DNA of 52,968 nt from a virus: positions 1 through 52,968 of IMG/VR virus record IMGVR_UViG_3300030329_000759; one strand, 5' to 3'. Shown piece by piece: positions 2,849 through 52,968 of this stretch. The notes under the pieces are model-generated. The model saw only the letters and a list, made by a program, of their open reading frames with translations, made no database searches and was not told where the DNA came from. Position 1 is the stretch's first letter. The number at the start of each line of letters is the position of its first letter. The translations under genes and the position numbers were made by a program.

Positions 2849-3057
2849 TAGAAGTGTTTATTTAAAACGTCTAATCTATCTTCATATGTAGCAATACTAT
2901 CTAACTCCTTTTCTATAGTTTCCATAACATCAGGATGCTCTGCAACACCCTGTGCATTTTCCATTAATACAATTACATTTATTTTATGTTTAGCTATTTG
3001 TCCTTTAGCATGAAAAATTAAAGCTGTTCTTATTTTATCTTTTAAATTAGGCTGCAA
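2848..3057 (-). CDS. conserved hypothetical protein, 69 aa
   Basis: A short soluble protein starting MQPNLKDKIRTALIFHAKGQ and containing EHPDVMETIEKELD. From memory, similar small proteins (KDKIRTAL.HAKG...EHPDV) occur beside nucleotide-metabolism genes in marine T4-like and T7-like phages; no function is known to me. The start is a TTG that overlaps the end of nrdB by 11 bases, so the two are probably translated from one message. Confidence 0.7.
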   Translation of the reverse strand: MQPNLKDKIRTALIFHAKGQIAKHKINVIVLMENAQGVAEHPDVMETIEKELDSIATYEDRLDVLNKHF

Positions 3058-4033
3058 TTTTTTGTTCCTTCTCCTTAGTATCTTTCCATCCCCAATCCCC
3101 TGTCATTCCAGAGGCATTATAATCAGTCACAACACCCTCGAAAAAGTTTTTAAGGGTATCACCCCCTACTATCCAATCTAACCATTCAAGAGGGTTTTCT
3201 TTAACTTTAAAGTTACCTTTTAAACCCAACTGAATTAGTCTTCTATCTGCTATGTATCTAATATAATGCTTGACTTGTTCAGCACTAAGCCCTTTAACTG
3301 CCCCCATCTCAAAGGCTGTATCTACTACAGCATCTTCTAATTTTACCCCATCCCTAAACATTTGATATATATCTTTCTTAAAATCATCTGTAACTATTCT
3401 AGGATGCTCCTTACAAAACTCTCTAAATAATTTAACCATACCCTCACAATGCATGGTTTCATCTCTAACAGACCACTCTACTATCTCACACATACCTTTC
3501 ATCTTGCCATATCTTTGATAGTTAAGAAGCATAGCAAAAGCTGAGAACAAAGACATACCCTCATTCATAACTGACCTAGCTATAGCCTTACCTAATCCTG
3601 ATATAGAATGCACATCTATATCGGACATAAAATCTATCTTGTCTTTCATCTGTTTATAATTTAAAAAAGCTGAATACTCTTCTTCAGGTAAACCTAAAGT
3701 ATCATTTAGTAGTGCATAACTTCTTTGATGTACAAACTCTCTGTTAGTAAAGCTAGTCAGCATGGCTCTAATCTCATTGTTTTTGAATTTCTGTATATAG
3801 TATTCAAGATAATTCGTACCCACAGCTACGTCACTTTGCGTAAACAATCTAAGTATTTGAGTGATATGATTTTTCTCTGCTTCGGTTAACTTACCTGACT
3901 GCCATTGTGACACATCATCTTGCAGTTTGGCTTCCCATTCACCCCAATGGGCTTTCTCAGACTGCACGGCAAACTCTACAGCCCAAGGATATTTAAAAGG
4001 TTTATACACAATTGAGGGATTTGTAAGACTCAT
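3047..4033 (-). CDS. nrdB: ribonucleoside-diphosphate reductase small subunit (class Ia R2)
   Basis: The protein (328 aa) forms the diiron/tyrosyl-radical subunit that works with NrdA to make dNTPs for phage replication. The iron-ligand pattern is visible: Asp68 (QSDVAVG), Glu99 and His102 (REFVHQRSY), Glu158 (MNEGM), Glu192 and His195 (DETMHCEGM). The radical tyrosine is Tyr106, seven residues after Glu99 as in E. coli R2. The lysine-rich C-terminal tail is where R2 normally docks to R1. It has a strong ribosome site (AAGGAG) and starts at ATG 4033. A hairpin with terminator features lies just upstream, separating it from the nrdA cluster, so its expression may be reduced relative to, or separate from, nrdA. 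Confidence 0.96.
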   Translation of the reverse strand: MSLTNPSIVYKPFKYPWAVEFAVQSEKAHWGEWEAKLQDDVSQWQSGKLTEAEKNHITQILRLFTQSDVAVGTNYLEYYIQKFKNNEIRAMLTSFTNREFVHQRSYALLNDTLGLPEEEYSAFLNYKQMKDKIDFMSDIDVHSISGLGKAIARSVMNEGMSLFSAFAMLLNYQRYGKMKGMCEIVEWSVRDETMHCEGMVKLFREFCKEHPRIVTDDFKKDIYQMFRDGVKLEDAVVDTAFEMGAVKGLSAEQVKHYIRYIADRRLIQLGLKGNFKVKENPLEWLDWIVGGDTLKNFFEGVVTDYNASGMTGDWGWKDTKEKEQKIAA

Positions 4034-5144: not shown

Positions 5145-6896
5145 CTATCCTTGGCAAGATATACATTCGTCAGCATCTTTTAAAGCATCTCTAACAATTT
5201 GAGTGCCTACTTTATCAGCCTGATTAGTTGCACTTGTTCTTAGATAATACAAACCTTTTAAACCTGATCTCCAAGCTCTAAGATGCACACTATTTACATA
5301 TCCTTTATCACTACCTGATGGGAAAAATAAATTAACTGATTGACCTTGACATATAAAAGTTTGTCTATCTGCTGCATGTTCAATTACCCATTCTTGATTT
5401 AATTCAAATGCAGTTTTAAAAACAGACTTTTCATAATCAGTTAAAAAAACACAATGCTGAACCGATCCCTCGTTGCTAATAATAGATTTCCAAACTTCAT
5501 CTGTGTTCTTTTGATACTTCAATAAAACTTTTTCTAAGTATCTATTCTTAATTAAATGTGAACCCACTCTTGTTCTATGCACATAGGCATTAGATTTTAT
5601 AGGTTCTATGCTAGGAGTACAACCACATATGATAGAGCTATTAGCATTAGGTGCTACAGCTAGTAAGTGAGCATTGCGTTTTCCTGATCCAATCATGTCA
5701 GGTGCTTCACCTCTTTGTTCAGCTAATAATCTAGTTTCTTCGAGGGCTTGCATTTTAATATTTCTAAACATACGTTTGTTTATACCTTTTGTAGATACTC
5801 CCTCAAAAGAAATATTATTTTTTTGTAAGTAACCATGAAACCCCATTGCCCCAAGTCCTAATGATCGTTCAGCAATGGCACTTCTTTTAGCCTTAACTAA
5901 ATCATCAGGAGCATTGTCTATAAACTTTTGTAAAACATTATCCAAAAAACGAATCAAATCTTTTACCATGTTAGTGTCTTTCCAATCATCATAAAACTCT
6001 AAATTGACACTAGACAAACAACATACAGCAGTACGTTTTTCATTGGTAGCTAAATGTATTTCATTGCAAAGATTACTACCATGAATTTTAAGACCTAATT
6101 TTTTTTGCTCTTCAGGCAAATGTTTATTAGCTGTGTCTATAAAATTTATGTAGGGAGAACCTGTTCTAAATCGTGCCTCAAGTATACGTTGCCACAACTC
6201 TCTAGCTGACATGGTATCTCTAACAGCTTTTGTATCAGGGTCTTTAAACTGCCACACTTCATTGTTTTCTACAGCTTTAATAAAATCATCTGTTACGTTT
6301 ACTGCATTAAACAGATTAAAGCATTTACGATTAGAATCACCCCCAGTAGGCAGCTTAAAATTAATAAACTCGCACACACTGGGATGACTAACATCCATAT
6401 ATGCTGCATAAGAACCTTTCCTAGTTTTACCTTGTTTATAGGCAGTCATCTGACTGTCAACAACTTTAAGGAATGGGATAGGTCCGGGAGATTTATCACC
6501 GACTGCCCTCACATCAGACCAATGACCACCTACCCCACCACCTTTTACAGACAACCATGCTACTTCAGAATTGTGAGAGATTAAATCTTTTAATGTATCT
6601 CCTACATAAGTTAAAAAGCAACTAATAGGTAAAGATTTCCATTTACCATTAGGAACAGGAGCATTACTAAGTACAGGACTAGCAAACATAAACCACCTGT
6701 TCGACGCATAATTATATATTCTCTGTGCAAAATCAAGGTCATCATTACAATAAGCAAGAGAGGCTCTAGCAAAAGATTCTTGAGGAGATGTTTCTCCTGG
6801 AATCATATAATAGTCTTGCAACAGTTGTAATCCCTGATCTGTTAAATCTTTATCTTTATTTAAGTCTATAGTTATACCATTATAATTCACAACCAA
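5145..6896 (-). CDS. nrdA: ribonucleoside-diphosphate reductase large subunit (class I R1)
   Basis: The catalytic R1 subunit (583 aa), which reduces ribonucleotides together with NrdB. The active-site run NLCNE is present (Asn275, Cys277, Glu279), with the redox cysteine Cys93 (PISCF) and partner Cys292/293 (AVCCLSSVNL). The radical-transfer tyrosines occur in GLYYLRTS, and the C-terminal redox pair is ECISCQG. NANSSIICGCTPSIEP is typical of class I enzymes. The protein lacks the N-terminal ATP-cone that senses dATP in cellular enzymes, so overall allosteric shut-off is probably missing, as in many phage versions. Two starts are possible: TTG 6896, or GTG 6890, which overlaps the upstream stop as GTGA. 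The gene is separated from nrdB by three small genes. Confidence 0.96.
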   Translation of the reverse strand: MVVNYNGITIDLNKDKDLTDQGLQLLQDYYMIPGETSPQESFARASLAYCNDDLDFAQRIYNYASNRWFMFASPVLSNAPVPNGKWKSLPISCFLTYVGDTLKDLISHNSEVAWLSVKGGGVGGHWSDVRAVGDKSPGPIPFLKVVDSQMTAYKQGKTRKGSYAAYMDVSHPSVCEFINFKLPTGGDSNRKCFNLFNAVNVTDDFIKAVENNEVWQFKDPDTKAVRDTMSARELWQRILEARFRTGSPYINFIDTANKHLPEEQKKLGLKIHGSNLCNEIHLATNEKRTAVCCLSSVNLEFYDDWKDTNMVKDLIRFLDNVLQKFIDNAPDDLVKAKRSAIAERSLGLGAMGFHGYLQKNNISFEGVSTKGINKRMFRNIKMQALEETRLLAEQRGEAPDMIGSGKRNAHLLAVAPNANSSIICGCTPSIEPIKSNAYVHRTRVGSHLIKNRYLEKVLLKYQKNTDEVWKSIISNEGSVQHCVFLTDYEKSVFKTAFELNQEWVIEHAADRQTFICQGQSVNLFFPSGSDKGYVNSVHLRAWRSGLKGLYYLRTSATNQADKVGTQIVRDALKDADECISCQG

Positions 6897-9698: not shown

Positions 9699-11750
9699 TT
9701 ATATATCTATTTGTTCTAACCAATTGTTTCCTATTTTTGCTTCTAATAATAATGGCACATTAAACTCTATGCCATATTTAGTTTCTAACAACTTAACTAA
9801 ATTCTTTTGCACTTCTTTAATAACATTTTGTATCTCATTAATTTCATCAGGATGTATATCAATTACTATTGAATCGTGTACTGAGTTTACCACAACACTC
9901 TTTAAATGTTTAATACTATTGTATATTTCCACTAAAACCAGGGGTACAATGTCTGCTGTGGCAAATGATTGTACAGGATAATTCTTTATTTGTGTAAAAT
10001 TTGTTACCGATCCGTCCCTTCTCCTCTTAGTATCAGGAAAAGAAAACTCTCTTCCACTAGGTATTTTTATGTATCCATAATTAACTGCTTGATTGGCTAA
10101 TTTTTTATGCCATTTACCTATACCTTTATACTTCTCTAAAAAATGTTCATAATAAGTTGCCTCTGCTCTAGTCCTACCATAGCCTGATGCTCCATATAAA
10201 GGTGCAAATGTATGTGCTTTAGCTACTTGTCTAGTAGTAGGTTGTCCTGCATCACTTATTACTTTAGCAGTATAGGCGTGTACATCAAACCCCTCAGTCA
10301 CTTCCTTGATTGCTGTAGAATCTTGACTGAGAAAAGCTGCAACTCTAAATTCTAATTGTGCAAAGTCAGCCTCCATAATTTTGCCCCCATCAAATCTAGA
10401 TACAAATACTTTTTTGACAGGGAACGTTGAACCTCTAGGCATGTTTTGCATATTAGGATTAGAGCCTGAGAATCTACCTGTAGATGTTACATGTTGATTT
10501 AATTTTACATGTAGAAAATCATCCTCTTTTAAAAAGTTTTCGATGCCATCTACAAAGTTAGACAGATAACTAGTAATAGCAGACAATCTTCTCAATTGTC
10601 CTAAAAAAGTTTTAGCCTCGTCCATACCTTTAGTAGAGGCAACTCTTTCAAGCACCTCTAAATTACTTTTAGAAGTAGAAAAACCATTAGCTGATGCCCA
10701 CTTTACAGAAGGGGGGCTAAACTTTAGTCCTGCTATGTCTTTCGTTTGTTTATATATAAACCCTGTGCCATTACAAACAGAACACTTAGTGGGTTTTTTA
10801 TAAAGACCTCCTGTTTTTTTCTTTTTAAAATAAGAACCTTTACCTTTACATGAATTACATTGCTCTGCTCTAGTTTTATACAAAGTTTTAAAATTAAACT
10901 TTATTAAATTTTTAAATGCAGGTGTCGGCAGGTTTGGTTGTATAGAAGATGCCCATCTTTTTTTATCTATTGGTTGTCTACTAAATAAAACCCAAGACAA
11001 TTGTTCAGGGCTGCCTAGATTAATTGGGGTATCTCCCATTAAATATCTTGTGTAAGAGTTAAGTTTCTTTTCTAAATCTAACTTCTCTTCTTCAAACTCT
11101 TTTCTTACTTGAGATAATTTATTTCTGTCTATCTTGAATCCTGATTGATACATTCTAGACAGCACTACTGCCACTTCATTAGTAATGTCTATTGTTTTTT
11201 TAAGCCCTTGATTCTCAACATCCGACAATCTGTTTTGTATCTTCTCGTATACCTCCTTGGTCGCACCGAGATCATGTCGGAGGTAGGTTTCAAGTTCGAG
11301 TCTTGGAATTTCTCTTGTGCTATATCCTCTTTTAAAATATTCTTTGAGTGTATCTTCTTTTTTTGTTTCACATTCATATCTTTCTGCTACTGCTTTTAAT
11401 CCTAGTGGATTAGTTACACCCCTTTGTAAAACATACTCTGCCAACATAGTATCAAATACTTTACCCTCGTATTTAAACCCACTCTCCCACAACCATAACA
11501 GATCATGGGAAATATTATGTCCAATTAACAGAGTAGCTTGATCTAAATAGCCCTGAACAGCATAGTAATTAGATATTGGATCGTCTTCTCTAGTAACACC
11601 CACATGGTCGAAAATATAAGTGGATGAATCCTCAGAACCCAATGGGTAAATACCAACCATAACCAAAGCATTTGTCCTCTCGAATGGATCAAGATGTAAC
11701 TTATTGTTTTTAGTGGTTGTTGTGTTTTCAACATCTATTATTAATTCCAT
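9699..11750 (-). CDS. DNA polymerase, family A (3'-5' exonuclease and polymerase) with zinc-type insertion
   Basis: A 683-residue replicative polymerase. Exonuclease motifs: IIDVENT (Asp6, Glu8), IGHNISHD (Asp83) and YLRHD (Tyr156, Asp160). Polymerase motifs: A, MEADFAQLEFR (Asp462); B, RQVAKAHTFAPLYG (Arg507, Lys511, Phe515); C, VNSVHDS (His625, Asp626). Phe515 is the residue equivalent to E. coli position 762. Between the exonuclease domain and motif A lies an unusual insert with CNSCKGKG (Cys298, Cys301) and CSVCNGTG (Cys323, Cys326), like half of a DnaJ zinc domain. The start overlaps the end of the methyltransferase gene by 23 bases. It acts with the primase and helicase encoded upstream. 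Confidence 0.95.
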   Translation of the reverse strand: MELIIDVENTTTTKNNKLHLDPFERTNALVMVGIYPLGSEDSSTYIFDHVGVTREDDPISNYYAVQGYLDQATLLIGHNISHDLLWLWESGFKYEGKVFDTMLAEYVLQRGVTNPLGLKAVAERYECETKKEDTLKEYFKRGYSTREIPRLELETYLRHDLGATKEVYEKIQNRLSDVENQGLKKTIDITNEVAVVLSRMYQSGFKIDRNKLSQVRKEFEEEKLDLEKKLNSYTRYLMGDTPINLGSPEQLSWVLFSRQPIDKKRWASSIQPNLPTPAFKNLIKFNFKTLYKTRAEQCNSCKGKGSYFKKKKTGGLYKKPTKCSVCNGTGFIYKQTKDIAGLKFSPPSVKWASANGFSTSKSNLEVLERVASTKGMDEAKTFLGQLRRLSAITSYLSNFVDGIENFLKEDDFLHVKLNQHVTSTGRFSGSNPNMQNMPRGSTFPVKKVFVSRFDGGKIMEADFAQLEFRVAAFLSQDSTAIKEVTEGFDVHAYTAKVISDAGQPTTRQVAKAHTFAPLYGASGYGRTRAEATYYEHFLEKYKGIGKWHKKLANQAVNYGYIKIPSGREFSFPDTKRRRDGSVTNFTQIKNYPVQSFATADIVPLVLVEIYNSIKHLKSVVVNSVHDSIVIDIHPDEINEIQNVIKEVQKNLVKLLETKYGIEFNVPLLLEAKIGNNWLEQIDI

Positions 11751-12993
11751 TTACTCTCTCTCCTATCCATTTAACAACAGGCACAGCCATGCTATTACCT
11801 AATGCTTTATACCTATGTCCATCAGGTGTGTGAGGTCTATTGTCATAAGGTATCTCAGTATATCCACATGGAAACCCTTGTAGTCTTTCACATTCTACAG
11901 GAGTTAAACGTCTAATTACTGACTTTTGATGGACATAATTTGTTTGTCTTGCCCCAGAATCTGCCGACAAAGATCCAGATATACTTCCATCTTCTCCTAT
12001 ATAACGAACTTCATCACGTTGATTCTGTTGAAAAATCTTTGGTTCTTGAGCCTCATATACAATAGGAGTGTCTGTCATATTTTCCCACCTTGCTTTCATG
12101 GTAGGGGATGTTTGCTCAGTATCTCTGTATCGTGCATCTTTAGCACGAGCTTCATATACAACAGCATGAACATCTGTTTTAGTTAAGGTGTACATGGTAT
12201 TGTCCTCAGATGCACCTACTCCATTTGGTCCAGCTTTCTCACTTCTGCCAATTAGATTACCTTGAATAGAAACAGGTACAAATCTAGGACAATCCGAGTT
12301 AATATGTTGATCTTCTAAACCCATCTTATCTCCATACCTAGCATCAAGTGTGTTACTTATTCTCGCAGGCCACCTGTTGTCTGTAGTAGAGCTTCCTCTA
12401 GTTTCTTTGGTAGTGTCTTTCCCCTTTTGTCTGCTCTCCTCAGTATCCCTCGACAGGCTTTCGGACTCAAAGAGTATCTCTGCTGCACTTCTCCAGTCCC
12501 CTGAAGAACATCCAACAACAAAGACTCTTTTACGTCTTTGGGGTACTCCGAAATATTGAGCATCCAAAGTTCTGTAGGCGAACCCATACCTGATTTCTTG
12601 AATCGCCCTGATGAAGGAGCTAAAGTCTTTTCCTTTGTTAGAGGACAAAACTCCAGGGACATTTTCCCAGATGAAATATTTGGGTTTAAAGTGGTCAAGT
12701 AATCCAATATAGGTGAGGGCAAGGTTTCCTCTTGGGTCTTCAAGTCCTTTCCTAAGTCCTGAGATACTGAACGATTGGCATGGTGTTCCTCCAATGATAA
12801 GGTCAACTGGTTCATTTATATTCCACTCCTTGTAGTTAGTCATGTCACCTAGATTAGGTACGTTTGGGTAATGATGCTTCAGAACAGCAGACGGAAACTT
12901 ATCTACCTCAGAAAAACCTAAAGGATTCCAACCTAGATTTTTCCAAGCTACAGTAGCTGCCTCTATTCCTGAACAAACTGATATGTAGTTCAT
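11728..12993 (-). CDS. DNA (cytosine-5) methyltransferase
   Basis: A 421-residue C5 methyltransferase. Motif I is SVCSGIEAATVAW (AdoMet binding); motif IV, GGTPCQSFSISG, carries the catalytic cysteine; motif VI is WENVPGVL; motif VIII is PQRRKRVFVV; and motifs IX-X are RRLTPVECERLQGFP and KALGNSMAVPVVKWIG. The long target-recognition region between VIII and IX is Asp/Thr-rich. It probably marks phage DNA so that host restriction enzymes cannot cut it. Its start overlaps the helicase stop (ATGA). There is no cognate restriction enzyme beside it, so it is an orphan enzyme. Confidence 0.95.
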   Translation of the reverse strand: MNYISVCSGIEAATVAWKNLGWNPLGFSEVDKFPSAVLKHHYPNVPNLGDMTNYKEWNINEPVDLIIGGTPCQSFSISGLRKGLEDPRGNLALTYIGLLDHFKPKYFIWENVPGVLSSNKGKDFSSFIRAIQEIRYGFAYRTLDAQYFGVPQRRKRVFVVGCSSGDWRSAAEILFESESLSRDTEESRQKGKDTTKETRGSSTTDNRWPARISNTLDARYGDKMGLEDQHINSDCPRFVPVSIQGNLIGRSEKAGPNGVGASEDNTMYTLTKTDVHAVVYEARAKDARYRDTEQTSPTMKARWENMTDTPIVYEAQEPKIFQQNQRDEVRYIGEDGSISGSLSADSGARQTNYVHQKSVIRRLTPVECERLQGFPCGYTEIPYDNRPHTPDGHRYKALGNSMAVPVVKWIGERVNGINNRC

Positions 12994-14210
12994 GCTGAAT
13001 ATACTCCTGTATGAAAGTCAAACTCACAATTAACAATCCTATGAACACCTGATATTTTATTTTTGACTATGTTTAGATACCTTAGTCCATCATCTTCAGT
13101 CTGATCGTTCATAGGGGGATTCCTAGCAATAAGAATCATAAGATCCGACTCCCCTGCTAGACCTGTTTTACTACCCTCAATCATGGCTTGTGATAAAACA
13201 ATCTTACCCTCTGCCTCTGCCGATAGTTGAGTGCAATAAACAACTAAACAGCCATACATTTTGCCTATGTTTCTAGCATAAATAGCATTGGCTTTTAATA
13301 CTTCATGGTTGTTGGTGTTAGATCCCTCTTCAGAAAACTTACTACCAATGTCCATGACAACTATGTCAGGCGAGTAGCTTTTTATAACTGCCTCTGCCCA
13401 AGACATAGTTTTTCCTGTAGCATCTAGGAATTTTAATTTATCTTTTATGGGGTCATAAAGTCTATGTGCCTCTGTCTTATCTTTTACAATTTGATTCATG
13501 GTCATGCCTGTGCAAGCAGTCATGTATCTAGCTGCAATTCTCTCAGGCTTTTCCTCATTGCATAAAATAAGAATCCTAGCACCTTGTTTAGCCCAACCAT
13601 TAGGACTAGCACAAAGGGTTGCATGGAAACTAGACTTACCTACATTTGATCTAGCACCTATGACAAACAGCATTCCATTGTCTAATCCATTCACACCTTG
13701 AAACAAAGAGGGAATGTTAAACTGCCATCTAGTATTACTACTTGCACTAGCTATCAATCCCTCAATAGTGTTGTCAATAAAATCTGTTTTTATTCTAGGT
13801 ATAAAATTATCTTGATGGTTTTCTAAAATATCTTTTAGTGGCTCAAGTGTAGTGACATCCCCATTGACATATTGAAAACCGAGATTGGCTACCAACTCTC
13901 CGACATACTGTCTATTAAGACTAGAAAGTAAATCATCTGCAACGTCTACACCTATGGCAGTTGCAGTTTCTATTTGCTTAAAAAATAAATTAAATTGTTG
14001 CTTCTGAGATGTTGTTAATGTGGGATGTGATGTAAAGAATAAACCTTTGACTTCTTCTAACTCTAGGTCACGTTGATAACTATCCATAGCATCATCTATA
14101 ACCTGTTTAATTTTTTTAATATCTTTTGTGAATAAATTGTTTGAACATCTCCCTTTTAATGAATCATAAAAATCTTTACTTAGTAAACTCTTTATTAGTG
14201 AATGTTCCAT
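12990..14210 (-). CDS. replicative DNA helicase (DnaB/RecA-like ATPase)
   Basis: A 406-residue RecA-fold helicase. Walker A is GARSNVGKSS, Walker B is PDIVVMDIGSKF, and CNEEKPERIAARY matches the helicase H1a-type region. The N-terminal 150 residues are helical and probably serve for hexamer or partner contacts. In T7 the primase and helicase are one protein; here the primase is a separate gene just upstream, overlapping by 35 bases. It should unwind DNA at the fork with the family A polymerase. Confidence 0.88.
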   Translation of the reverse strand: MEHSLIKSLLSKDFYDSLKGRCSNNLFTKDIKKIKQVIDDAMDSYQRDLELEEVKGLFFTSHPTLTTSQKQQFNLFFKQIETATAIGVDVADDLLSSLNRQYVGELVANLGFQYVNGDVTTLEPLKDILENHQDNFIPRIKTDFIDNTIEGLIASASSNTRWQFNIPSLFQGVNGLDNGMLFVIGARSNVGKSSFHATLCASPNGWAKQGARILILCNEEKPERIAARYMTACTGMTMNQIVKDKTEAHRLYDPIKDKLKFLDATGKTMSWAEAVIKSYSPDIVVMDIGSKFSEEGSNTNNHEVLKANAIYARNIGKMYGCLVVYCTQLSAEAEGKIVLSQAMIEGSKTGLAGESDLMILIARNPPMNDQTEDDGLRYLNIVKNKISGVHRIVNCEFDFHTGVYSA

Positions 14211-15051
14211 TAAATGCCTCTATTGTATTTTTTATAAATGTAACGTCTGCTAATTTTCTGTACTTAATATCATCTGTTAATTTCAAAGCTAATACTTTCA
14301 CTCCATGTGATTTTAATATTTTTGTGTACTCAATTGTTTTCTTAGCTGCATCAGGATCAAGAGCAACTATAACCCTTTTAAAGTGTTTAAGTGCTTGTAT
14401 GTGATGTATGTTCATGGAAGTACCTAGTATGGCTACACCTGTAGCACCAAGAGTTTCTATAACACAGGCACTCACAACATCCTCTACAACTATACCTAGC
14501 TTGTGTTGCCCTCGAACAAAACCCTCTGCATAATTACCATACCTTTTCCATTTAGGAATGACATTATCATCTACTGCTCTGCCAACAGCATCTACTAACT
14601 TGCCGTTATCTTCTACAGGAAAAACAATCCTACTCTCTTTAACGTCATAGTGTAAATTAAGATCCTTTGCCCACAGTCCATACCTCTCACAAAATTCAGT
14701 CACAACTGCATACGGATTGTAAGTAACATTGCAATCATTAACATGTTCATAATCATAATTTAACAGGGGTCTGACATGATCAGGTAAAGAAAAAATATCA
14801 GTGTTAATTCTGTTTAGATCGTCCGACTTTTCTATTTTAAAATCTTGCATTCTTTTTCTTATTTCCTCGGCTGACATAAGTATGGTTTTAGCACCTGACA
14901 GAGAACAACTATTAGCATAGCAATTCCATATCAGCTTTCCCATATTGTTGGTTGCAGTAAAGGTGTTAGACCTATTACACTCAGGACATTTACCCCGGAA
15001 TTTCTGTCCGTCAGATAAGTCTAAGTCCTCTACATACCTAAGTACGTTCAC
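14176..15051 (-). CDS. DNA primase (zinc-binding and TOPRIM domains)
   Basis: A 291-residue primase resembling the N-terminal half of T7 gp4. The zinc-binding domain is near the N terminus, KCPEC...NCYANSC (Cys22, Cys25, Cys44, Cys49), which would read the priming site. The TOPRIM part shows GIVVEDVVSACVI (catalytic Glu) and VIVALDPDAAKK (Asp-x-Asp). It has no helicase domain, which is in the next gene. The start is GTG 15051, overlapping the integrase stop as GTGA, so integrase and primase are translated from one message. Confidence 0.92.
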   Translation of the reverse strand: MNVLRYVEDLDLSDGQKFRGKCPECNRSNTFTATNNMGKLIWNCYANSCSLSGAKTILMSAEEIRKRMQDFKIEKSDDLNRINTDIFSLPDHVRPLLNYDYEHVNDCNVTYNPYAVVTEFCERYGLWAKDLNLHYDVKESRIVFPVEDNGKLVDAVGRAVDDNVIPKWKRYGNYAEGFVRGQHKLGIVVEDVVSACVIETLGATGVAILGTSMNIHHIQALKHFKRVIVALDPDAAKKTIEYTKILKSHGVKVLALKLTDDIKYRKLADVTFIKNTIEAFNGTFTNKEFTK

Positions 15052-20312: not shown

Positions 20313-20705
20313 TTATAGGTCACACCATGAAAACTTAACATTGTCTTTTGTGTTTTTTTTGTAAAGGTCAGCAAGTTCAATTGCCATTCTAGTTAACTCG
20401 CCAATTAAATCGGCGTGTCTGTAACAGAAACTGTCCAAAGTGTCCTCAGTTGTTTCATTGTTTGAGTCAACTAATCTAGTCCCTGATTTTTTATCGAGAA
20501 CGATTGCCATATATTCCAACGGCGTTGCGTTCAAACCTTCAGTGCCTGTGATTTTACAAACGTCTTTCTTATCCCAATCGTATTCAATTCCATTGGTAAG
20601 AATTCTTTTTGGCTTGTCGTAACTATAAATTACAATTTCAAAGTCATCATAGTTAGTGACAGAAACAACTTTCTTGTCGTTTGTTTTCAATGTCATTCTC
20701 CTCAA
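20313..20705 (-). CDS. hypothetical protein, 130 aa
   Basis: The reading frame starts at TTG 20705, overlapping the upstream TGA as TTGA, or at ATG 20696, where GAGGAG is almost adjacent to the ATG. The beta-rich N-terminal half (DFEIVIYSYDKPKRIL) is followed by a helical C-terminal half (ADLIGELTRMAIELADLYKK). No family is recognised. It is next to the methyltransferase-like gene and probably co-expressed with it. Confidence 0.6.
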   Translation of the reverse strand: MRRMTLKTNDKKVVSVTNYDDFEIVIYSYDKPKRILTNGIEYDWDKKDVCKITGTEGLNATPLEYMAIVLDKKSGTRLVDSNNETTEDTLDSFCYRHADLIGELTRMAIELADLYKKNTKDNVKFSWCDL

Positions 20706-21361
20706 GTTAAAATAAGTCTAGTCCATTGGTCTGCCATAGCATTGGCAATACCTTTAAATGTTTTACTTCTTTGTTCTGCCCTCTCTTTTGGTGTGAGTTT
20801 CCACAACTCTGAGTACCACTTCGGCATCTTGCTACCATTACCCATAGTCACAAACTCCCCTTTGTCTACTACCTTTGTAGGCTTTAGTAAGGGTAAGTTT
20901 TTTAACCATAAACATGTAGTCTTTTGTGCCTTGTGTCCAAACTGCCAAGGCTGTATTATCTGATCAGGCTTTCTTATCTGACTTGAGATAACTGACATAG
21001 GATTCTCTATTGCTATTCTGTGAATGGGTGCATTCATCAAGAGTCTAACAAAGTCTAAGGCTTTCCCTCTCTTATTCCATCTATCTATATTCTTTGTCTT
21101 GTCCTTGTTATATAACCATCTGTTACCACTTAGAGCAAGGTATGTACAAGGGGGAAAAGCAATCATCATATCCCAATGTTGATCTAATATTTTTGTGATA
21201 TCCCCTTGTATGTGATTCTTATGTGGGTTAGGTTTGATGTCACAAGAGTAGGTGTTCATATATCCTAGTCTTATGAATGCATCTCTGAGTGTTCCTGATT
21301 CCTCACAAGCAACAAGGATTCTAATGTCTTTGGGTAGTATATTAAATGGGATAATTTTCAT
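20702..21361 (-). CDS. C5-methyltransferase-like phage protein, 219 aa
   Basis: An AdoMet-binding type start, RILVACEESGTLRDAFIRLG with YSCDIKPN and IQGDITKIL, is followed by FPPCTYLALSGNRW, which resembles the PC motif of cytosine methyltransferases, and RIAIENPMSVIS, like their ENV/ENP motif. It lacks the large target-recognition domain of the full enzyme at 11728-12993. Proteins of this kind are common in phages and are usually called DNA methyltransferase-like. Methylation of DNA or of a nucleotide is possible; activity is unproven. Confidence 0.7.
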   Translation of the reverse strand: MKIIPFNILPKDIRILVACEESGTLRDAFIRLGYMNTYSCDIKPNPHKNHIQGDITKILDQHWDMMIAFPPCTYLALSGNRWLYNKDKTKNIDRWNKRGKALDFVRLLMNAPIHRIAIENPMSVISSQIRKPDQIIQPWQFGHKAQKTTCLWLKNLPLLKPTKVVDKGEFVTMGNGSKMPKWYSELWKLTPKERAEQRSKTFKGIANAMADQWTRLILT

Positions 21362-22915: not shown

Positions 22916-23923
22916 TTATGCTACCTTTAATTTATTTTTTTCTAATACGTTGTCAGTAGCAACTCGTATATATTCAAATGCTTTTTCAGCATCAGAACAT
23001 GCTTTAAATAGTTTTGTTGGATTCTTTTTTAAACTTTCATACCAACTTTTTAAATAACATACATGATTTTTAGACACTAACTTGCATTTGTTGCCATAGT
23101 AAGCATCTAATAAGCTACTAGTAAACTCAGCTACTAATTCCTCATAAGCATATGAATTTGTACTAAAAGAGTTATTTAATTTTCTATTTAATCTAGACTC
23201 ATGCCCTGTTGCATGTCCAATTTCATGACCTAGTGTAGATAAAAAATGTTCTTCACTATCAAATGATTCCTTAATCGGCATATCAATAGAATCGAAATTG
23301 GGGTAATAACATGCCCTATCTCTTTGCACCAAATGCATACCATTTTTTAAATTAATACCTTTTATCATGGCATTCTCTAACTCTGACAATGGGATGGTTT
23401 TTTCTACTTTTTTTGGTTTATATTTATCTTCAAGGTCATTAATAATTTTATCTACATCCTTAACTTTTCCTACCAATTGCGATAGATTCATGACATTGTA
23501 ATATTTATATTTAGGTATCAATCCAAATGTGGGATTTCCATCCTTATCTAAAATTGGTTTATTGTCTTTTTTCTTTTCGTATTGTTTCATAGAGAAATGG
23601 AAAATGTTTGAATACTTGTTTCCCTTTATAACTTTGTATGCATTTTCACCAAACAAAGTAATCATATTGTTTTCGGTTAGCCACAAGTTAGACTTATAAT
23701 TATTTTTAGCCTGAACATATGAAAGTAATAATGCATTTGAACCCTTGTAGACATTTTTGGTATGTGGGTTTAACTGAGATAACAAATTAAAATCTTTAGG
23801 ATTCCAACATTTTTTATAATCTGATGATTTATTGTCAGGGTTAAAAATATCCTCAATCAAAGATTGTAAAATTTTATTTTGTGAAACTTGTTGTGTTGTT
23901 AATGTTTGTTTGTATGTTTTCAT
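22916..23923 (-). CDS. ArdC-type antirestriction protein (ssDNA-binding and metallopeptidase domains)
   Basis: The N-terminal half (to about residue 160) has the layout of the ArdC ssDNA-binding domain. The C-terminal half carries a zincin motif, HEIGHATGH (His233, Glu234, His237, His241), preceded by CYYPNFDSIDMP and followed by YEELVAEF, as in the metallopeptidase domain paired with ArdC. ArdC proteins protect incoming DNA from host restriction. As the second gene from the leftward promoter it is placed to be made very early in infection. Length (335 aa) is normal for the family. Confidence 0.88.
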   Translation of the reverse strand: MKTYKQTLTTQQVSQNKILQSLIEDIFNPDNKSSDYKKCWNPKDFNLLSQLNPHTKNVYKGSNALLLSYVQAKNNYKSNLWLTENNMITLFGENAYKVIKGNKYSNIFHFSMKQYEKKKDNKPILDKDGNPTFGLIPKYKYYNVMNLSQLVGKVKDVDKIINDLEDKYKPKKVEKTIPLSELENAMIKGINLKNGMHLVQRDRACYYPNFDSIDMPIKESFDSEEHFLSTLGHEIGHATGHESRLNRKLNNSFSTNSYAYEELVAEFTSSLLDAYYGNKCKLVSKNHVCYLKSWYESLKKNPTKLFKACSDAEKAFEYIRVATDNVLEKNKLKVA

Positions 23924-25525: not shown

Positions 25526-26737
25526 ATGGCTATCCCACAATTAGCAGCAATAGGTGTTCGAGAAGTAGCAAAATTTACAATTAAATACGGAATTCCAGCA
25601 GCTAAAGAAGCATATAAGGCTTACCTTAAAAAAAATCCTGCCGTAAGAAAAAAAATAAAAGGAAGTCTTGAAAATATTACTAAAGATTTTTTTAGTAAAA
25701 AAAGCATTACAAATGCAGGTAGTAAATTTAAAGAAGCAGCAAGTAAAACAAAGACTAGTGCTAGAAAGACTAACACACCCAGACCACCAAAAAAAGATCC
25801 AAAAAAAGATACCACTAAAGATACATCTAAAACAGAAAAACCTGATGTAAAAAAATCAAGAGCACAAAAAGCTTTTGATAGGGGTGCTAAGATGACCCAA
25901 GCTGAGAGAAATGCTCTTGTAAGAAAAAGAGCAGGACAGGCTATTGGTATTACAGGTGTAGGTGTAGGTGTAAGTGAAGCTGTTAAAAGTATTCAATCTA
26001 GCAAAGCTAAAGCAGAAGATAAAGCTAGAGCTAAAGCAGAAGCAGATGCTAAACGAAAAAAAGAATTAAAACAAAAGCAAAAGGATAGAGCAAATCAAAG
26101 AATGAATCAAGCCAATCCTAATGTACAAACATCTGTTAGAAGTGGTGGTTTTGAAGCTAAACGTGATAAGCCTGTATTGGGAAGCTCTAAAAATATTAGA
26201 TATGGTAGTGGAAGAGGTACTACTACATTTGAAGATAAAGATAAAAATGTAGTAAGAGATCGTTTTGGTAAAGCAGTTAAGAGTAAATCAGGTAAAGTTA
26301 GAACAAGAGATATTTTTAAAAGTAGTGTTTTTATGAAAGGCGGTATGACAATGAAAAAAAAGATGATGGCAGGAGGTGGCACTATGAAAAAGAAAGGGTA
26401 TGCTGCTGGTGGGGTAATGAAAAAGAAGATGATGGCAGCAGGTGGAAACATGAAGAAAAAAATGATGGCAGCTGGTGGTAATATGAAAAAGAAAATGATG
26501 CAAGTAGGTGGAGCATTAAAATCACCAACAGCCGATCAAACAGGTTTAAAAAAACTACCAAAATCTGTTCGTAATACAATGGGTTACTTGAAAAAAGGTG
26601 GTGCAGTTAAAAAGAAAATGATGGGTGGTGGAATGTCTAAGAAAAAAGGATATGCTGCTGGTGGTATGGGAATGAAAAAAGGCTATGCTGCTGGAGGTCG
26701 TGCTACAATGAAGAGGTCAACAACACGAGGAAAATAA
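25526..26737 (+). CDS. lysine-rich protein with MKKKMMAAGG repeats, 403 aa
   Basis: Three parts are visible. The N terminus is helical and basic (KFTIKYGIPAAKEAYKAYLK). The middle is a long low-complexity Lys/Ala/Asp/Thr linker. The C-terminal part (about residues 270-400) is made of repeats of the form GG-x-MKKKMMAAGG and KKKGYAAGG, with at least seven units. The protein is extremely basic and methionine-rich, so DNA binding in the capsid or membrane contact is plausible. Similar repeats occur in marine phage proteins of unknown role. It lies upstream of terminase among other small basic proteins. Confidence 0.75.
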   Translation: MAIPQLAAIGVREVAKFTIKYGIPAAKEAYKAYLKKNPAVRKKIKGSLENITKDFFSKKSITNAGSKFKEAASKTKTSARKTNTPRPPKKDPKKDTTKDTSKTEKPDVKKSRAQKAFDRGAKMTQAERNALVRKRAGQAIGITGVGVGVSEAVKSIQSSKAKAEDKARAKAEADAKRKKELKQKQKDRANQRMNQANPNVQTSVRSGGFEAKRDKPVLGSSKNIRYGSGRGTTTFEDKDKNVVRDRFGKAVKSKSGKVRTRDIFKSSVFMKGGMTMKKKMMAGGGTMKKKGYAAGGVMKKKMMAAGGNMKKKMMAAGGNMKKKMMQVGGALKSPTADQTGLKKLPKSVRNTMGYLKKGGAVKKKMMGGGMSKKKGYAAGGMGMKKGYAAGGRATMKRSTTRGK

Positions 26738-42046: not shown

Positions 42047-43813
42047 ATGGGTACAGGCTACACAAGAAATGATTCAAGTAATAACATTGCTGATGGTAAT
42101 GTAATTAATGCATCAGATTTAGATGGTGAGTTTGATGCAATAGTTACTGCTTTTTCTACATCAGGACATACACATGATGGTACATCTGCTGAAGGTGGCC
42201 CAATTACTAAAGTTGGCCCTGCCCAAAATGTAGAAATTAGTGCTGCTGGCATATCTCCTTCATTAACTAATACCGTTGATCTAGGTAGTACAGCTAAACA
42301 ATTTAAAGACTTATATATAGATGGTACTGCTAACTTAGATACTGTATCAGCAGACACAGCAAATGTTGCTGGTGCAGTAACATTAGGTTCTACTCTAGGG
42401 GTAGCTGGAAATACTTCAGTTGCAGGTACTTTATCTGTAGCAGGAGAATTTACTTTTGCTACAGCTAATGTTTCTGGAACACTAGGAGTTGTAGGTGCAG
42501 CTTCCGTAGGTGGTACATTTAATGCAATTGGAAACACTTCTGTAGGTGGAACATTTAGAGTTACAGGTAATGCTACAGGTTCAGCAGATTTAGATATTAA
42601 AGGTGCAGTTTCTGTTGGAGGTGTAGGTACATTTAGTAATGCAATAGATGTTGCAGGTGGTATTTCAGGTTCTAGCACTTTAGATATACAAGAAGCAGCA
42701 TCTATAGGTACAACATTAGCAGTAACAACTAATACTGATATAGGTGGAACATTAGATGTTCAAGGTGCAGTTTCTGTTGGAGGTGTCTTAACTTTATCAA
42801 ATGAATTAAATAGTATAGAAAAAATATCAACAACTGAAAATATGTCTGTTGGTGGAACACTAACAGTTAATAATGATTATGTAGGTATTGATAGGTTTGA
42901 CAATATAGGTAATGCATCTATTGGTGGAACATTATTAGTTAATCAAGCTACAACATTAAATAATGATTTAGATGTAGCAGGTGGCATATCAGGAACAACT
43001 ACATTAGATATTAGACAAGATGCTTCTGTAGGTGGAACATTAACAGTTACTAACAATCAAGCTAATGCAGGTACTTTAAGTGTTATTGGTGCTGCTTCTG
43101 TTGGGGGAACATTAGGTATAACTAGTAATGCTTCGGTATTAGGAACACTAGTAGCTTCTGCTATAGATGTTACTTCTACTTTAGAAGTAGTGGGTGCAGC
43201 TTCAGTAGGAGGAACTTTTGGTATAACAAACAATGTTTCTGTGTTAGGCACATTAGTAGCTTCTGCTATAGATGTTACATCAACTTTAGAAGTTGTAGGA
43301 GCAGCATCTGTAGGAGCTACACTAGGTGTAACAGGTAATGCTTCTGTAACAGGTACATTAGCTATAGGTGAAGATTTATCTGTAGTTAGAGGATTTACAT
43401 TTGCATCTGCTGCTGGAACAGGTAGATTAGATGTAGTAGGACTTGCTTCAGTTGGTGGTACACTATTAAGTACAGGTGGAGTATCTGATGCTGATGGTAA
43501 TTTAAGAGATATTCCTAAGTCGAGAACATTTGCAGATACAACAGTTTCTGCTGCTCAAACGGATGCAGGTAACTTTATATTTTTAACCTCTTCTGATCAG
43601 ACAGTTGTAATTCCAACAGCATCTGGAACGTTTGATACTGGAGATATATTTAGTGTGGTTTGTGCAGGAGCATCAGCAACAATCTCATCAAATATTAGTC
43701 TTATGTTTAAAGTAGGAGAAGCATCAGCCACAGCAACAATCACTTTAGGGGCAAATAAAATAGCATCAGTTTTATTTGTTTCATCGCAACACGCATATAT
43801 CACAGGAACATAA
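42047..43813 (+). CDS. repetitive tail fibre protein, 588 aa
   Basis: N terminus MGTGYTRNDSSNNIADGNVI, GEFDAIVTAFSTSGHTHDGT is typical of fibres that plug into the tail. The body is made of short repeats such as AASVGGTLGV / NASVLGTL, suggesting a beta-helical or trimeric shaft. Three 105-base units (43094, 43199 and 43304 onward) give nearly identical 35-residue repeats. The C terminus (SSDQTVVIPTASGTFDTGDI) looks like a capping domain. It probably contacts the host surface together with the glycine-rich protein encoded next. Confidence 0.85.
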   Translation: MGTGYTRNDSSNNIADGNVINASDLDGEFDAIVTAFSTSGHTHDGTSAEGGPITKVGPAQNVEISAAGISPSLTNTVDLGSTAKQFKDLYIDGTANLDTVSADTANVAGAVTLGSTLGVAGNTSVAGTLSVAGEFTFATANVSGTLGVVGAASVGGTFNAIGNTSVGGTFRVTGNATGSADLDIKGAVSVGGVGTFSNAIDVAGGISGSSTLDIQEAASIGTTLAVTTNTDIGGTLDVQGAVSVGGVLTLSNELNSIEKISTTENMSVGGTLTVNNDYVGIDRFDNIGNASIGGTLLVNQATTLNNDLDVAGGISGTTTLDIRQDASVGGTLTVTNNQANAGTLSVIGAASVGGTLGITSNASVLGTLVASAIDVTSTLEVVGAASVGGTFGITNNVSVLGTLVASAIDVTSTLEVVGAASVGATLGVTGNASVTGTLAIGEDLSVVRGFTFASAAGTGRLDVVGLASVGGTLLSTGGVSDADGNLRDIPKSRTFADTTVSAAQTDAGNFIFLTSSDQTVVIPTASGTFDTGDIFSVVCAGASATISSNISLMFKVGEASATATITLGANKIASVLFVSSQHAYITGT

Positions 43814-51590: not shown

Positions 51591-52968
51591 AATATACTTA
51601 TAATTTAAATGGTTTAAAGTTTGCTTCTGAAGAAGAATTAAATGAAGATGAACAACAAGAAGTTTTTGATACTTTTCAAAGACAACAATTAGAAACACAA
51701 CAACAACAAAATATTGTAAAAGAACCTGAATCTAAACTTGAAGATGTAGATGAAATTATTTTAAAAGAAACAAAGTATGATTCTATATTTAAAGAGGTAG
51801 GTAAAGAATACAATATAAATCCTCAACTGTTAAAATCTATAGCAAAACAAGAATCTAATTTTGATCCTAGTGCTGAAGGTGAAGATGGTGAAATAGGTAT
51901 GATGCAACTCATGCCTGTTATTAGTAACAAATACATACCCAATCAAAATCCAAATGATCCTAGAAATAATGTTATAGGTGCAGCTAAGTTTCTTCAGCAT
52001 TTAAAAAAGAAATATAACAATGATCCTAATAAAGTTCTTCAAGCATACAATGGTGGAGAAACTCTTTTAGATAAAAATCCTATGGGTGTAAAACAAACAC
52101 AGGATTACAGGGATAGTGTACTAAAAAATATTTCGGCTGCTCAACCATTTAAGCAACAAAAACAAGCACAGCCTATAGTAGGTTCTGCCACACCTGTAGA
52201 ACAACAAGAACCTGTAACTAATACATTTAAAATTAAGTACAATGATTTATATAAAAATCAAGATTACTTTGATCGAGTAGAAGATTATATGGTTTTTAGA
52301 TTTGGAAAAGATTATGAGTATGATAAAAAAGAAGAATCAAAAAAAGAATATGTAAGAAAATTTGCTACACATATAAGGGAAGTTTATTATAACAATATTG
52401 ATTTAACTCAGGAAGTGCTTTGGACAAGTAAAGCAAACAAAGCACAAAGAACAGCAGCAGGATATGCATTTACTTTATGGGAAGCTATACCAATTATAGA
52501 TGGAGGTTACAATAAATTTGAAGCATTTGCTGATATTGCTAATGCTTTAGCTTTTGATCCAATGACATACTTTGGGGCTATTGCAGGAAAAGCAGTAAGT
52601 GTAGCAGGTAGTAAAACTGCATTATCACTAGCAAGAAAACAACTTAATCAAAAAACACTTCTTAAAAATTTAAAACCAGGATTAAAAAATAAAGCAAAAA
52701 GAACAGAAATTAAAAATAAAATAAAAGAAGTTGACAAACAACTTAAATCACATGTAAGACAAAATAGAATTGCACAGTTTAGTACTGGTTTTGGAGTAGA
52801 AGGTTTATTCGGAAGTTATGCAGGAGGACTTGATGAAGCACTTGCTGTTCAACAATATAGAAAAGAAACTTTTGATAAATCTAATATTGTATTAAGAGGT
52901 GTAGTTACTGGTGCTCTTGGTGGGGTAAGTACTTTGCCTGGAATATTTTTTTCTAAGGAATTAAAAGA
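51587..52968 (+). CDS. internal virion protein with lytic transglycosylase domain, N-terminal part (continues at base 1)
   Basis: Starts MKYTYNLNGLKFASEEELNE at 51587, overlapping the previous stop (ATGA). Residues about 65-170 form a soluble lytic transglycosylase (SLT) domain: KQESNFDPSAEG with the catalytic Glu89, GEIGMMQLMP (101-110) and LQAYNGGE (151-158). The enzyme would open a local hole in peptidoglycan during DNA entry, as T7 gp16 does. After a Gln/Pro linker the chain continues as a long helical protein over the circle junction to 2753, about 1,344 residues in all. The open frame has no stop before the window end, and the last two bases differ from the left copy. Confidence 0.92.
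   Translation, partial: MKYTYNLNGLKFASEEELNEDEQQEVFDTFQRQQLETQQQQNIVKEPESKLEDVDEIILKETKYDSIFKEVGKEYNINPQLLKSIAKQESNFDPSAEGEDGEIGMMQLMPVISNKYIPNQNPNDPRNNVIGAAKFLQHLKKKYNNDPNKVLQAYNGGETLLDKNPMGVKQTQDYRDSVLKNISAAQPFKQQKQAQPIVGSATPVEQQEPVTNTFKIKYNDLYKNQDYFDRVEDYMVFRFGKDYEYDKKEESKKEYVRKFATHIREVYYNNIDLTQEVLWTSKANKAQRTAAGYAFTLWEAIPIIDGGYNKFEAFADIANALAFDPMTYFGAIAGKAVSVAGSKTALSLARKQLNQKTLLKNLKPGLKNKAKRTEIKNKIKEVDKQLKSHVRQNRIAQFSTGFGVEGLFGSYAGGLDEALAVQQYRKETFDKSNIVLRGVVTGALGGVSTLPGIFFSKELK
52869..52966. repeat. terminal direct repeat, right copy (circular overlap)
   Basis: Identical to bases 1-98. Removing one copy gives the closed circle and restores one continuous reading frame from 51587 to 2753. 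Confidence 0.93.

What the first reader, a model, noticed from the sequence alone, without database searches (positions are those of the whole stretch)
10761..10859. DnaJ-like zinc insertion inside the DNA polymerase
Family A phage polymerases do not normally carry CxxCxGxG repeats. Here Cys298/Cys301 and Cys323/Cys326 form two such motifs about 25 residues apart, in an insert between the exonuclease domain and motif A. T7 polymerase uses an insert in this general region to bind thioredoxin; a zinc module could be a different clamp or primase contact.
Basis: partly seen in the sequence, partly recalled or inferred. Interest (0 to 1): 0.65.

Follow-up and report, generated by a model that had tools for sequence, protein, structure and literature searches.

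The report
Known zinc module in phage polymerase
This ocean phage's DNA-copying enzyme carries a small, very probably zinc-holding finger at the tip of its DNA-gripping "thumb"; the feature is already published as a hallmark of this abundant phage group, but what it does has not been tested and it may help the enzyme hold on to DNA.

Summary
The 683-aa family A DNA polymerase (9699-11750, minus strand) carries CNSCKGKG (298-305) and CSVCNGTG (323-330) between its exonuclease and polymerase domains. It is not new: the window is an HMO-2011-type marine phage, and this "partial DnaJ central domain" with two CXXCXGXG motifs is in the HMO-2011 GenBank record and is used in the literature to define the group. 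No test of its function was found.

Added here: all four cysteines are kept in 229 of 229 homologues fetched by homology. On the tree the module changes state once; the other phage polymerases fetched have a shorter loop there without the four cysteines. A model predicts strand-knuckle-strand-strand-knuckle-strand, matching DnaJA2, UvrA and anti-TRAP zinc folds, the first two at about 2 Å; it resembles DnaJ motifs 2+3, so one zinc site. It replaces the thumb-tip loop (Klenow about 594-606), one loop after T7's thioredoxin-binding insert, and carries a conserved basic hairpin.

Best explanation: a zinc-stiffened thumb-tip hairpin that grips DNA, a built-in processivity aid. The anatomy is well supported; the function is inferred (about 0.5).

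The parts
9699..11750 (-). Family A DNA polymerase, 683 aa, with 3'-5' exonuclease domain
11226..11627 (-). 3'-5' exonuclease domain match (residues 42-175, PF01612)
10683..10982 (-). Enlarged thumb-tip (H1-H2) loop, residues about 257-356, replacing Klenow about 594-606
   Evidence: alignment with Klenow, T7 and phage relatives
10734..10880 (-). Predicted zinc module proper, residues 291-339: strand, knuckle 1, hairpin, knuckle 2, strand
10836..10859 (-). Motif 1 CNSCKGKG, residues 298-305
   Evidence: C298, C301 and G303 in 229/229
10785..10835 (-). Basic beta-hairpin between the knuckles, residues 306-322, net charge +7; positions 309, 311, 312 and 322 basic in 94-100% of homologues
10761..10784 (-). 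Motif 2 CSVCNGTG, residues 323-330
   Evidence: C323, C326 and G330 in 229/229
9714..10709 (-). Polymerase domain match (residues 348-679, PF00476)
12990..14210 (-). DnaB-like helicase of the same replication module
14176..15051 (-). Toprim primase of the same replication module
   Evidence: sub-threshold or borderline Toprim matches; position as in HMO-2011

Best explanation
This is the HMO-2011-type family A DNA polymerase. Its thumb-tip loop, between thumb helices H1 and H2, has been enlarged into a compact module. Four cysteines in two CxxCxGxG knuckles bind one zinc ion, as in the zinc site formed by motifs 2+3 of DnaJ. The zinc stiffens a lysine-rich beta-hairpin at the thumb tip, which in family A polymerases faces the newly made duplex. 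The most likely work of the module is to grip duplex DNA and raise the polymerase's DNA affinity and processivity: a built-in aid where T7 uses a thioredoxin-bound insert. Shown by computation: position, conservation, predicted fold, one change of state on the tree. Inferred: zinc occupancy, DNA contact and processivity.
For: Four cysteines plus G303 and G330 invariant in 229/229 homologues; kept even where 12 residues are added between the motifs (CRP-738). Loops outside the group have 0-2 cysteines, none has three. Insert-only model, pLDDT about 91 in the module, with four strands and the cysteine pairs at the two strand junctions; top Foldseek hits are DnaJA2 and UvrA zinc modules at about 2 angstrom, anti-TRAP lower. 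Profile best PDB match is E. coli DnaJ motifs 2-3, then antiterminator Q. Thumb-tip location from alignment. Conserved basic hairpin; module net charge +2 to +13, mean +7.3. T7's thumb insert is reported to act as a clamp by basic contacts to the DNA backbone (PMC5984650); lysine-rich thumb insertions of plant organellar polymerases are proposed to contact duplex DNA (PMC7699545). No thioredoxin gene in this record.
Against: No metal, DNA-binding or processivity measurement exists. Fold-search E-values for the small module are weak (best 0.16). Polymerases outside the group have a loop here without the four cysteines, so zinc is not needed for a thumb-tip hairpin in general. Basic charge varies (+2 to +13), and about 11% of equal-length windows of the same proteins are as basic.
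Confidence: 0.55

Rival explanations
1. The zinc module is mainly a protein-docking site on the thumb: it binds the phage single-strand-binding protein, helicase-primase or a host factor, rather than DNA.
For: T7's thumb insert binds thioredoxin and is the contact for the T7 single-strand-binding protein's tail (PMC7699545). The polymerase sits next to helicase, primase and an unassigned neighbour, so partners are at hand.
Against: The conserved surface seen here is basic and hairpin-like, which fits DNA at least as well. It is not at T7's insert position. No partner was identified.
Confidence: 0.25
2. The zinc only stabilises an elongated thumb loop (a structural staple); deleting it would hardly change synthesis.
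For: Polymerases outside the group manage with a shorter loop without the four cysteines.
Against: Strict conservation of the cysteines and several basic positions over highly diverged members, down to about 36% identity in the insert.
Confidence: 0.13
3. The module is a true fragment of DnaJ that recruits the host DnaK chaperone to the replication fork, as the literature's comparison with lambda replication hints.
For: Pfam names the stretch DnaJ_CXXCXGXG and the closest solved sequence is E. coli DnaJ. PMC9038755 recalls DnaJ's role in lambda replication.
Against: No J-domain in the protein, the part that stimulates DnaK. Only two of four motifs and a score under the curated cut-off. The resemblance to phage Q proteins is comparable, and UvrA and anti-TRAP, not chaperones, follow DnaJA2 in the fold search, so descent from DnaJ is not shown.
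Confidence: 0.03

Closest known systems
DNA polymerase of Puniceispirillum phage HMO-2011 and other HMO-2011-type phages (CRP-1/2/3, CRP-235, CRP-738, HTVC033P)
   Same: Same protein, same insert, same two motifs and same gene neighbourhood; 37-60% identity over the polymerase.
   Different: Only sequence divergence; the window has a C5 methyltransferase gene between helicase and polymerase, absent at that place in HMO-2011.
Polymerases of Methylophilales phage MEP401, Icepovirus, Alcaligenes phage QDWS535 and related phages
   Same: The same thumb loop is enlarged (mostly 45-64 aa over the aligned stretch) with a recurrent Y-K-x-G...G...K stretch.
   Different: Lack the four cysteines; on the other side of a branch with 99% support. 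Several are split into two genes.
T7 gp5 thioredoxin-binding domain
   Same: An insert in the thumb of a phage family A polymerase; reported to act as a DNA clamp.
   Different: Lies before helix H1 (T7 258-333, literature numbering), not after it; no zinc knuckles aligned; no thioredoxin gene in this record.
DnaJ cysteine-rich domain (PF00684), zinc site of motifs 2+3
   Same: Two CxxCxGxG knuckles around a hairpin; fold match 2.3 angstrom over 40 columns to DnaJA2; profile match to motifs 2-3 of E. coli DnaJ.
   Different: Two motifs instead of four, no J-domain, under the Pfam cut-off.
Zinc modules of UvrA, anti-TRAP and antiterminator Q
   Same: Same small CxxC...CxxC hairpin type; UvrA and anti-TRAP by fold, Q by sequence profile; UvrA and Q are DNA-binding proteins.
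   Different: Different host proteins; weak statistics because the module is small.

Membership tests
HMO-2011-type DNA polymerase | Two CXXCXGXG motifs in a partial DnaJ domain between exonuclease and polymerase domains (PMC9038755 criterion) | tested here: met
HMO-2011-type DNA polymerase | Full-length homology with HMO-2011 polymerase and its gene order (integrase, primase, helicase, polymerase, endonuclease I, RNR) | tested here: met
   60% identity over the full length; gene order, with one extra methyltransferase gene
Family A DNA polymerase (PF00476) | Score over the curated cut-off and PolA fold | tested here: met
   190.4 against 34.3 bits; Foldseek Bst, Klenow, apPol
DnaJ central domain (PF00684) | Four CxxCxGxG motifs forming two zinc sites | tested here: not met
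   Two motifs only; matched to profile 13-55 of 65
DnaJ central domain (PF00684) | Score over the curated cut-off | tested here: not met
   24.7 bits (30.7 for the insert alone) against 32.7
DnaJ / Hsp40 | J-domain in the same protein | tested here: not met
   No J-domain match in the polymerase
Zinc knuckle pair (DnaJ/UvrA/anti-TRAP-like fold) | Four metal-ligand cysteines conserved together | tested here: met
   229/229; loops outside the group have 0-2 cysteines
Zinc knuckle pair (DnaJ/UvrA/anti-TRAP-like fold) | Cysteines brought together in the fold | tested here: inconclusive
   Strand order and fold matches agree; distances not measured
Zinc knuckle pair (DnaJ/UvrA/anti-TRAP-like fold) | Bound zinc | not testable with these tools
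   Needs metal analysis of the protein
T7-type thioredoxin-binding domain | Insert between thumb helices H and H1 | tested here: not met
   Insert lies after the H1 helix
T7-type thioredoxin-binding domain | Binds thioredoxin and gains processivity | not testable with these tools
   No thioredoxin gene in the record; host thioredoxin not excluded

The most novel reading that the evidence does not exclude
HMO-2011-type phages use a zinc-stiffened thumb tip as a built-in processivity clamp: a solution at a different thumb loop from T7's thioredoxin-bound insert, reached once by adding zinc knuckles to a hairpin that related phage polymerases carry without the four cysteines.
Probability: 0.4. 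Interest if true: 0.6.

Novelty: already known. Interest (0 to 1): 0.33.

Why it matters
HMO-2011-type phages are described as dominant and broadly distributed in the ocean (PMC9038755), and every polymerase of the group seen here has this module, yet its job is unknown. Fixing its place at the thumb tip turns a vague "partial DnaJ domain" into a testable idea about how a phage polymerase stays on DNA without a separate clamp. It could also be useful for engineering polymerases.

Tried and rejected
Chance motif: rejected by shuffling and conservation. True DnaJ fragment recruiting DnaK: no J-domain, two of four motifs, under the cut-off, and comparable resemblance to Q. Homology with T7's thioredoxin-binding insert: a different loop; MAFFT misplaced T7's insert at first, and a pairwise alignment of T7 from residue 330 with Klenow settled it. 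Spread outside the group: a search with the thumb region alone found only the 12 HMO-2011-type records among 50,697 phage records, although 4,122 records have a family A polymerase match; a quite different zinc insert would be missed. The scan of genome contigs gave 12 loci; seven full or near-full relatives (55-57% identity) lie in marine metagenome-assembled bins, probably binned phage contigs, and all seven keep the four cysteines. A query with the Alcaligenes phage N-half found no viral relative. A literature search for Klenow thumb-tip deletions found nothing in the library, so that precedent rests on my own knowledge. Direct Cys-Cys distances could not be measured because model coordinates are not exported.

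Full report
OBSERVATION. The ORF at 9699-11750 on the minus strand encodes 683 aa. It contains exactly two CxxCxGxG motifs, residues 298-305 and 323-330, at the coordinates given, and only one other cysteine, Cys127. None of 200,000 shuffles of the protein held two motifs. Pfam finds the exonuclease at 42-175, a sub-threshold DnaJ_CXXCXGXG match at 293-334 and DNA_pol_A at 348-679.

WHAT THE WINDOW IS. The record is a 52,968-base virus contig whose two ends overlap by about 98 bases with one mismatch. The closest named phage is Puniceispirillum phage HMO-2011: 60% identity over the whole polymerase, with the same order integrase, primase, helicase, polymerase, endonuclease I, ribonucleotide reductase. 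It is therefore an HMO-2011-type phage.

ALREADY KNOWN. The GenBank note on the HMO-2011 polymerase itself lists PF00684 between the exonuclease and polymerase domains. [quoted passage not shown] PMC9038755 uses the two motifs as an entry criterion for the group, and PMC8528129 does likewise. In those passages the function is not tested; PMC9038755 only recalls DnaJ's role in lambda replication.

CONSERVATION, TESTED WITHOUT THE MOTIF CRITERION. Homologues were gathered by sequence homology, not by the motif. In 229 polymerases from the window and viral contigs all four cysteines, G303 and G330 are invariant; G305 is 228/229 and G328 161/229. In 67 diverse copies of the insert the four cysteines are among 13 invariant columns. 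CRP-738 has 12 extra residues between the motifs, yet the cysteines are kept. Among 64 polymerases outside the group the aligned loop has no cysteine in 50, one in 13 and two in one. No partial form with three was seen, as expected for a metal site.

ORIGIN. In a tree of 75 polymerase N-terminal parts, with the loop columns left out, the zinc-type rows form one side of a single branch (SH-aLRT 99; one change of state). The tree cannot by itself tell gain from loss, and very long rows (T7, E. coli) are placed unreliably. The other phages have a shorter loop at the same place with a recurrent Y-K-x-G...G...K stretch. A likely history is that zinc knuckles were added to such a hairpin (inference).

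STRUCTURE. AF2 of the full protein gives pLDDT 87.4 and a PolA fold. AF2 of the insert from 67 sequences gives strands at 291-297, 306-310, 316-322 and 331-339, with the cysteine pairs at the junctions between strands 1/2 and 3/4, and pLDDT about 91 over most of that stretch. Antiparallel pairing of these strands would bring the four cysteines together (inference). Foldseek's top hits are the zinc modules of DnaJA2 (probability 1.00, 2.3 angstrom) and UvrA (0.96, 1.8 angstrom), with anti-TRAP lower (0.84, 3.2 angstrom); E-values are weak because the module is small. A profile of the insert finds E. coli DnaJ first (E=0.0097), aligned to motifs 2 and 3, then antiterminator Q. This points to one zinc site.

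PLACE IN THE THUMB. The insert follows the conserved N-L-x-S-P-E-Q-L helix (Klenow 579-592, H1) and precedes the helix matching Klenow from about 607 (H2), so it replaces the thumb-tip loop. In T7 gp5 the FNPSS at 333-337 aligns with Klenow FNLSS at 578-582, and T7's thioredoxin-binding insert lies before it. Both inserts are in the thumb, in neighbouring loops. That the thumb tip faces the duplex, and that its deletion in Klenow lowers DNA affinity and processivity, is my own knowledge; no paper in the library was found for it.

LIKELY WORKING. The hairpin between the knuckles carries net charge +7 here, and positions 309, 311, 312 and 322 are basic in 94-100% of homologues. T7's insert presents basic residues to the DNA backbone and acts as a clamp in simulations (PMC5984650), and plant organellar polymerases carry lysine-rich thumb insertions proposed to contact duplex DNA (PMC7699545). 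No thioredoxin gene was found in this record. The best explanation is therefore a zinc-stiffened thumb tip that grips duplex DNA. I hold the structural part at about 0.9 and the DNA-grip part at about 0.5. Rivals: protein docking (0.25), a purely structural staple (0.13), DnaK recruitment (0.03).

VERDICT. A correct observation of a feature that is already described and is a hallmark of its group. The added value here is its exact place, its predicted single-zinc fold, its strict conservation and single change on the tree, and a sharper testable mechanism.

Noticed in passing
11728-12993: A C5 cytosine methyltransferase gene (PF00145) sits between helicase and polymerase, overlapping the polymerase start. 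HMO-2011 has none there, and of 177 related loci with enough upstream sequence only L002 (84% identical polymerase) has one, by a motif search.
   Followed up: partly
3047-4033 and 5145-6896: A ribonucleotide reductase small chain (PF00268) and large chain are both present, which suggests a class I enzyme, whereas HMO-2011 is annotated with an adenosylcobalamin-dependent (class II) enzyme.
   Followed up: no
L087:992-3102, L088:905-2998, L089:950-2865, L090:989-3113: Relatives of the polymerase in MEP401, Vibrio phage Rostov-5342, Alcaligenes phage QDWS535 and ctOsX528 are split into two genes near motif A, in MEP401 and ctOsX528 with another annotated gene between the halves; many viral contigs show the same short N-half ORF.
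   Followed up: partly
1-98 and 52871-52968: The two ends of the record overlap by about 98 bases with one mismatch, within one open reading frame, so the record is probably a complete genome cut at an arbitrary point.
   Followed up: partly
26350-26694: Tandem 33-base repeats inside the ORF at 25526-26737 encode Lys/Met/Gly-rich repeats (MKKKMMAAGGN).
   Followed up: no
43088-43348: A 105-base tandem repeat in the ORF at 42047-43813 encodes Ala/Ser/Val/Gly-rich repeats (ASVGGTL), perhaps a tail-associated protein.
   Followed up: no
20702-21361 and 22916-23923: A second DNA methyltransferase-like protein (phrog_757) and an anti-restriction-like protein (phrog_7245), possible counter-defence genes.
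   Followed up: no
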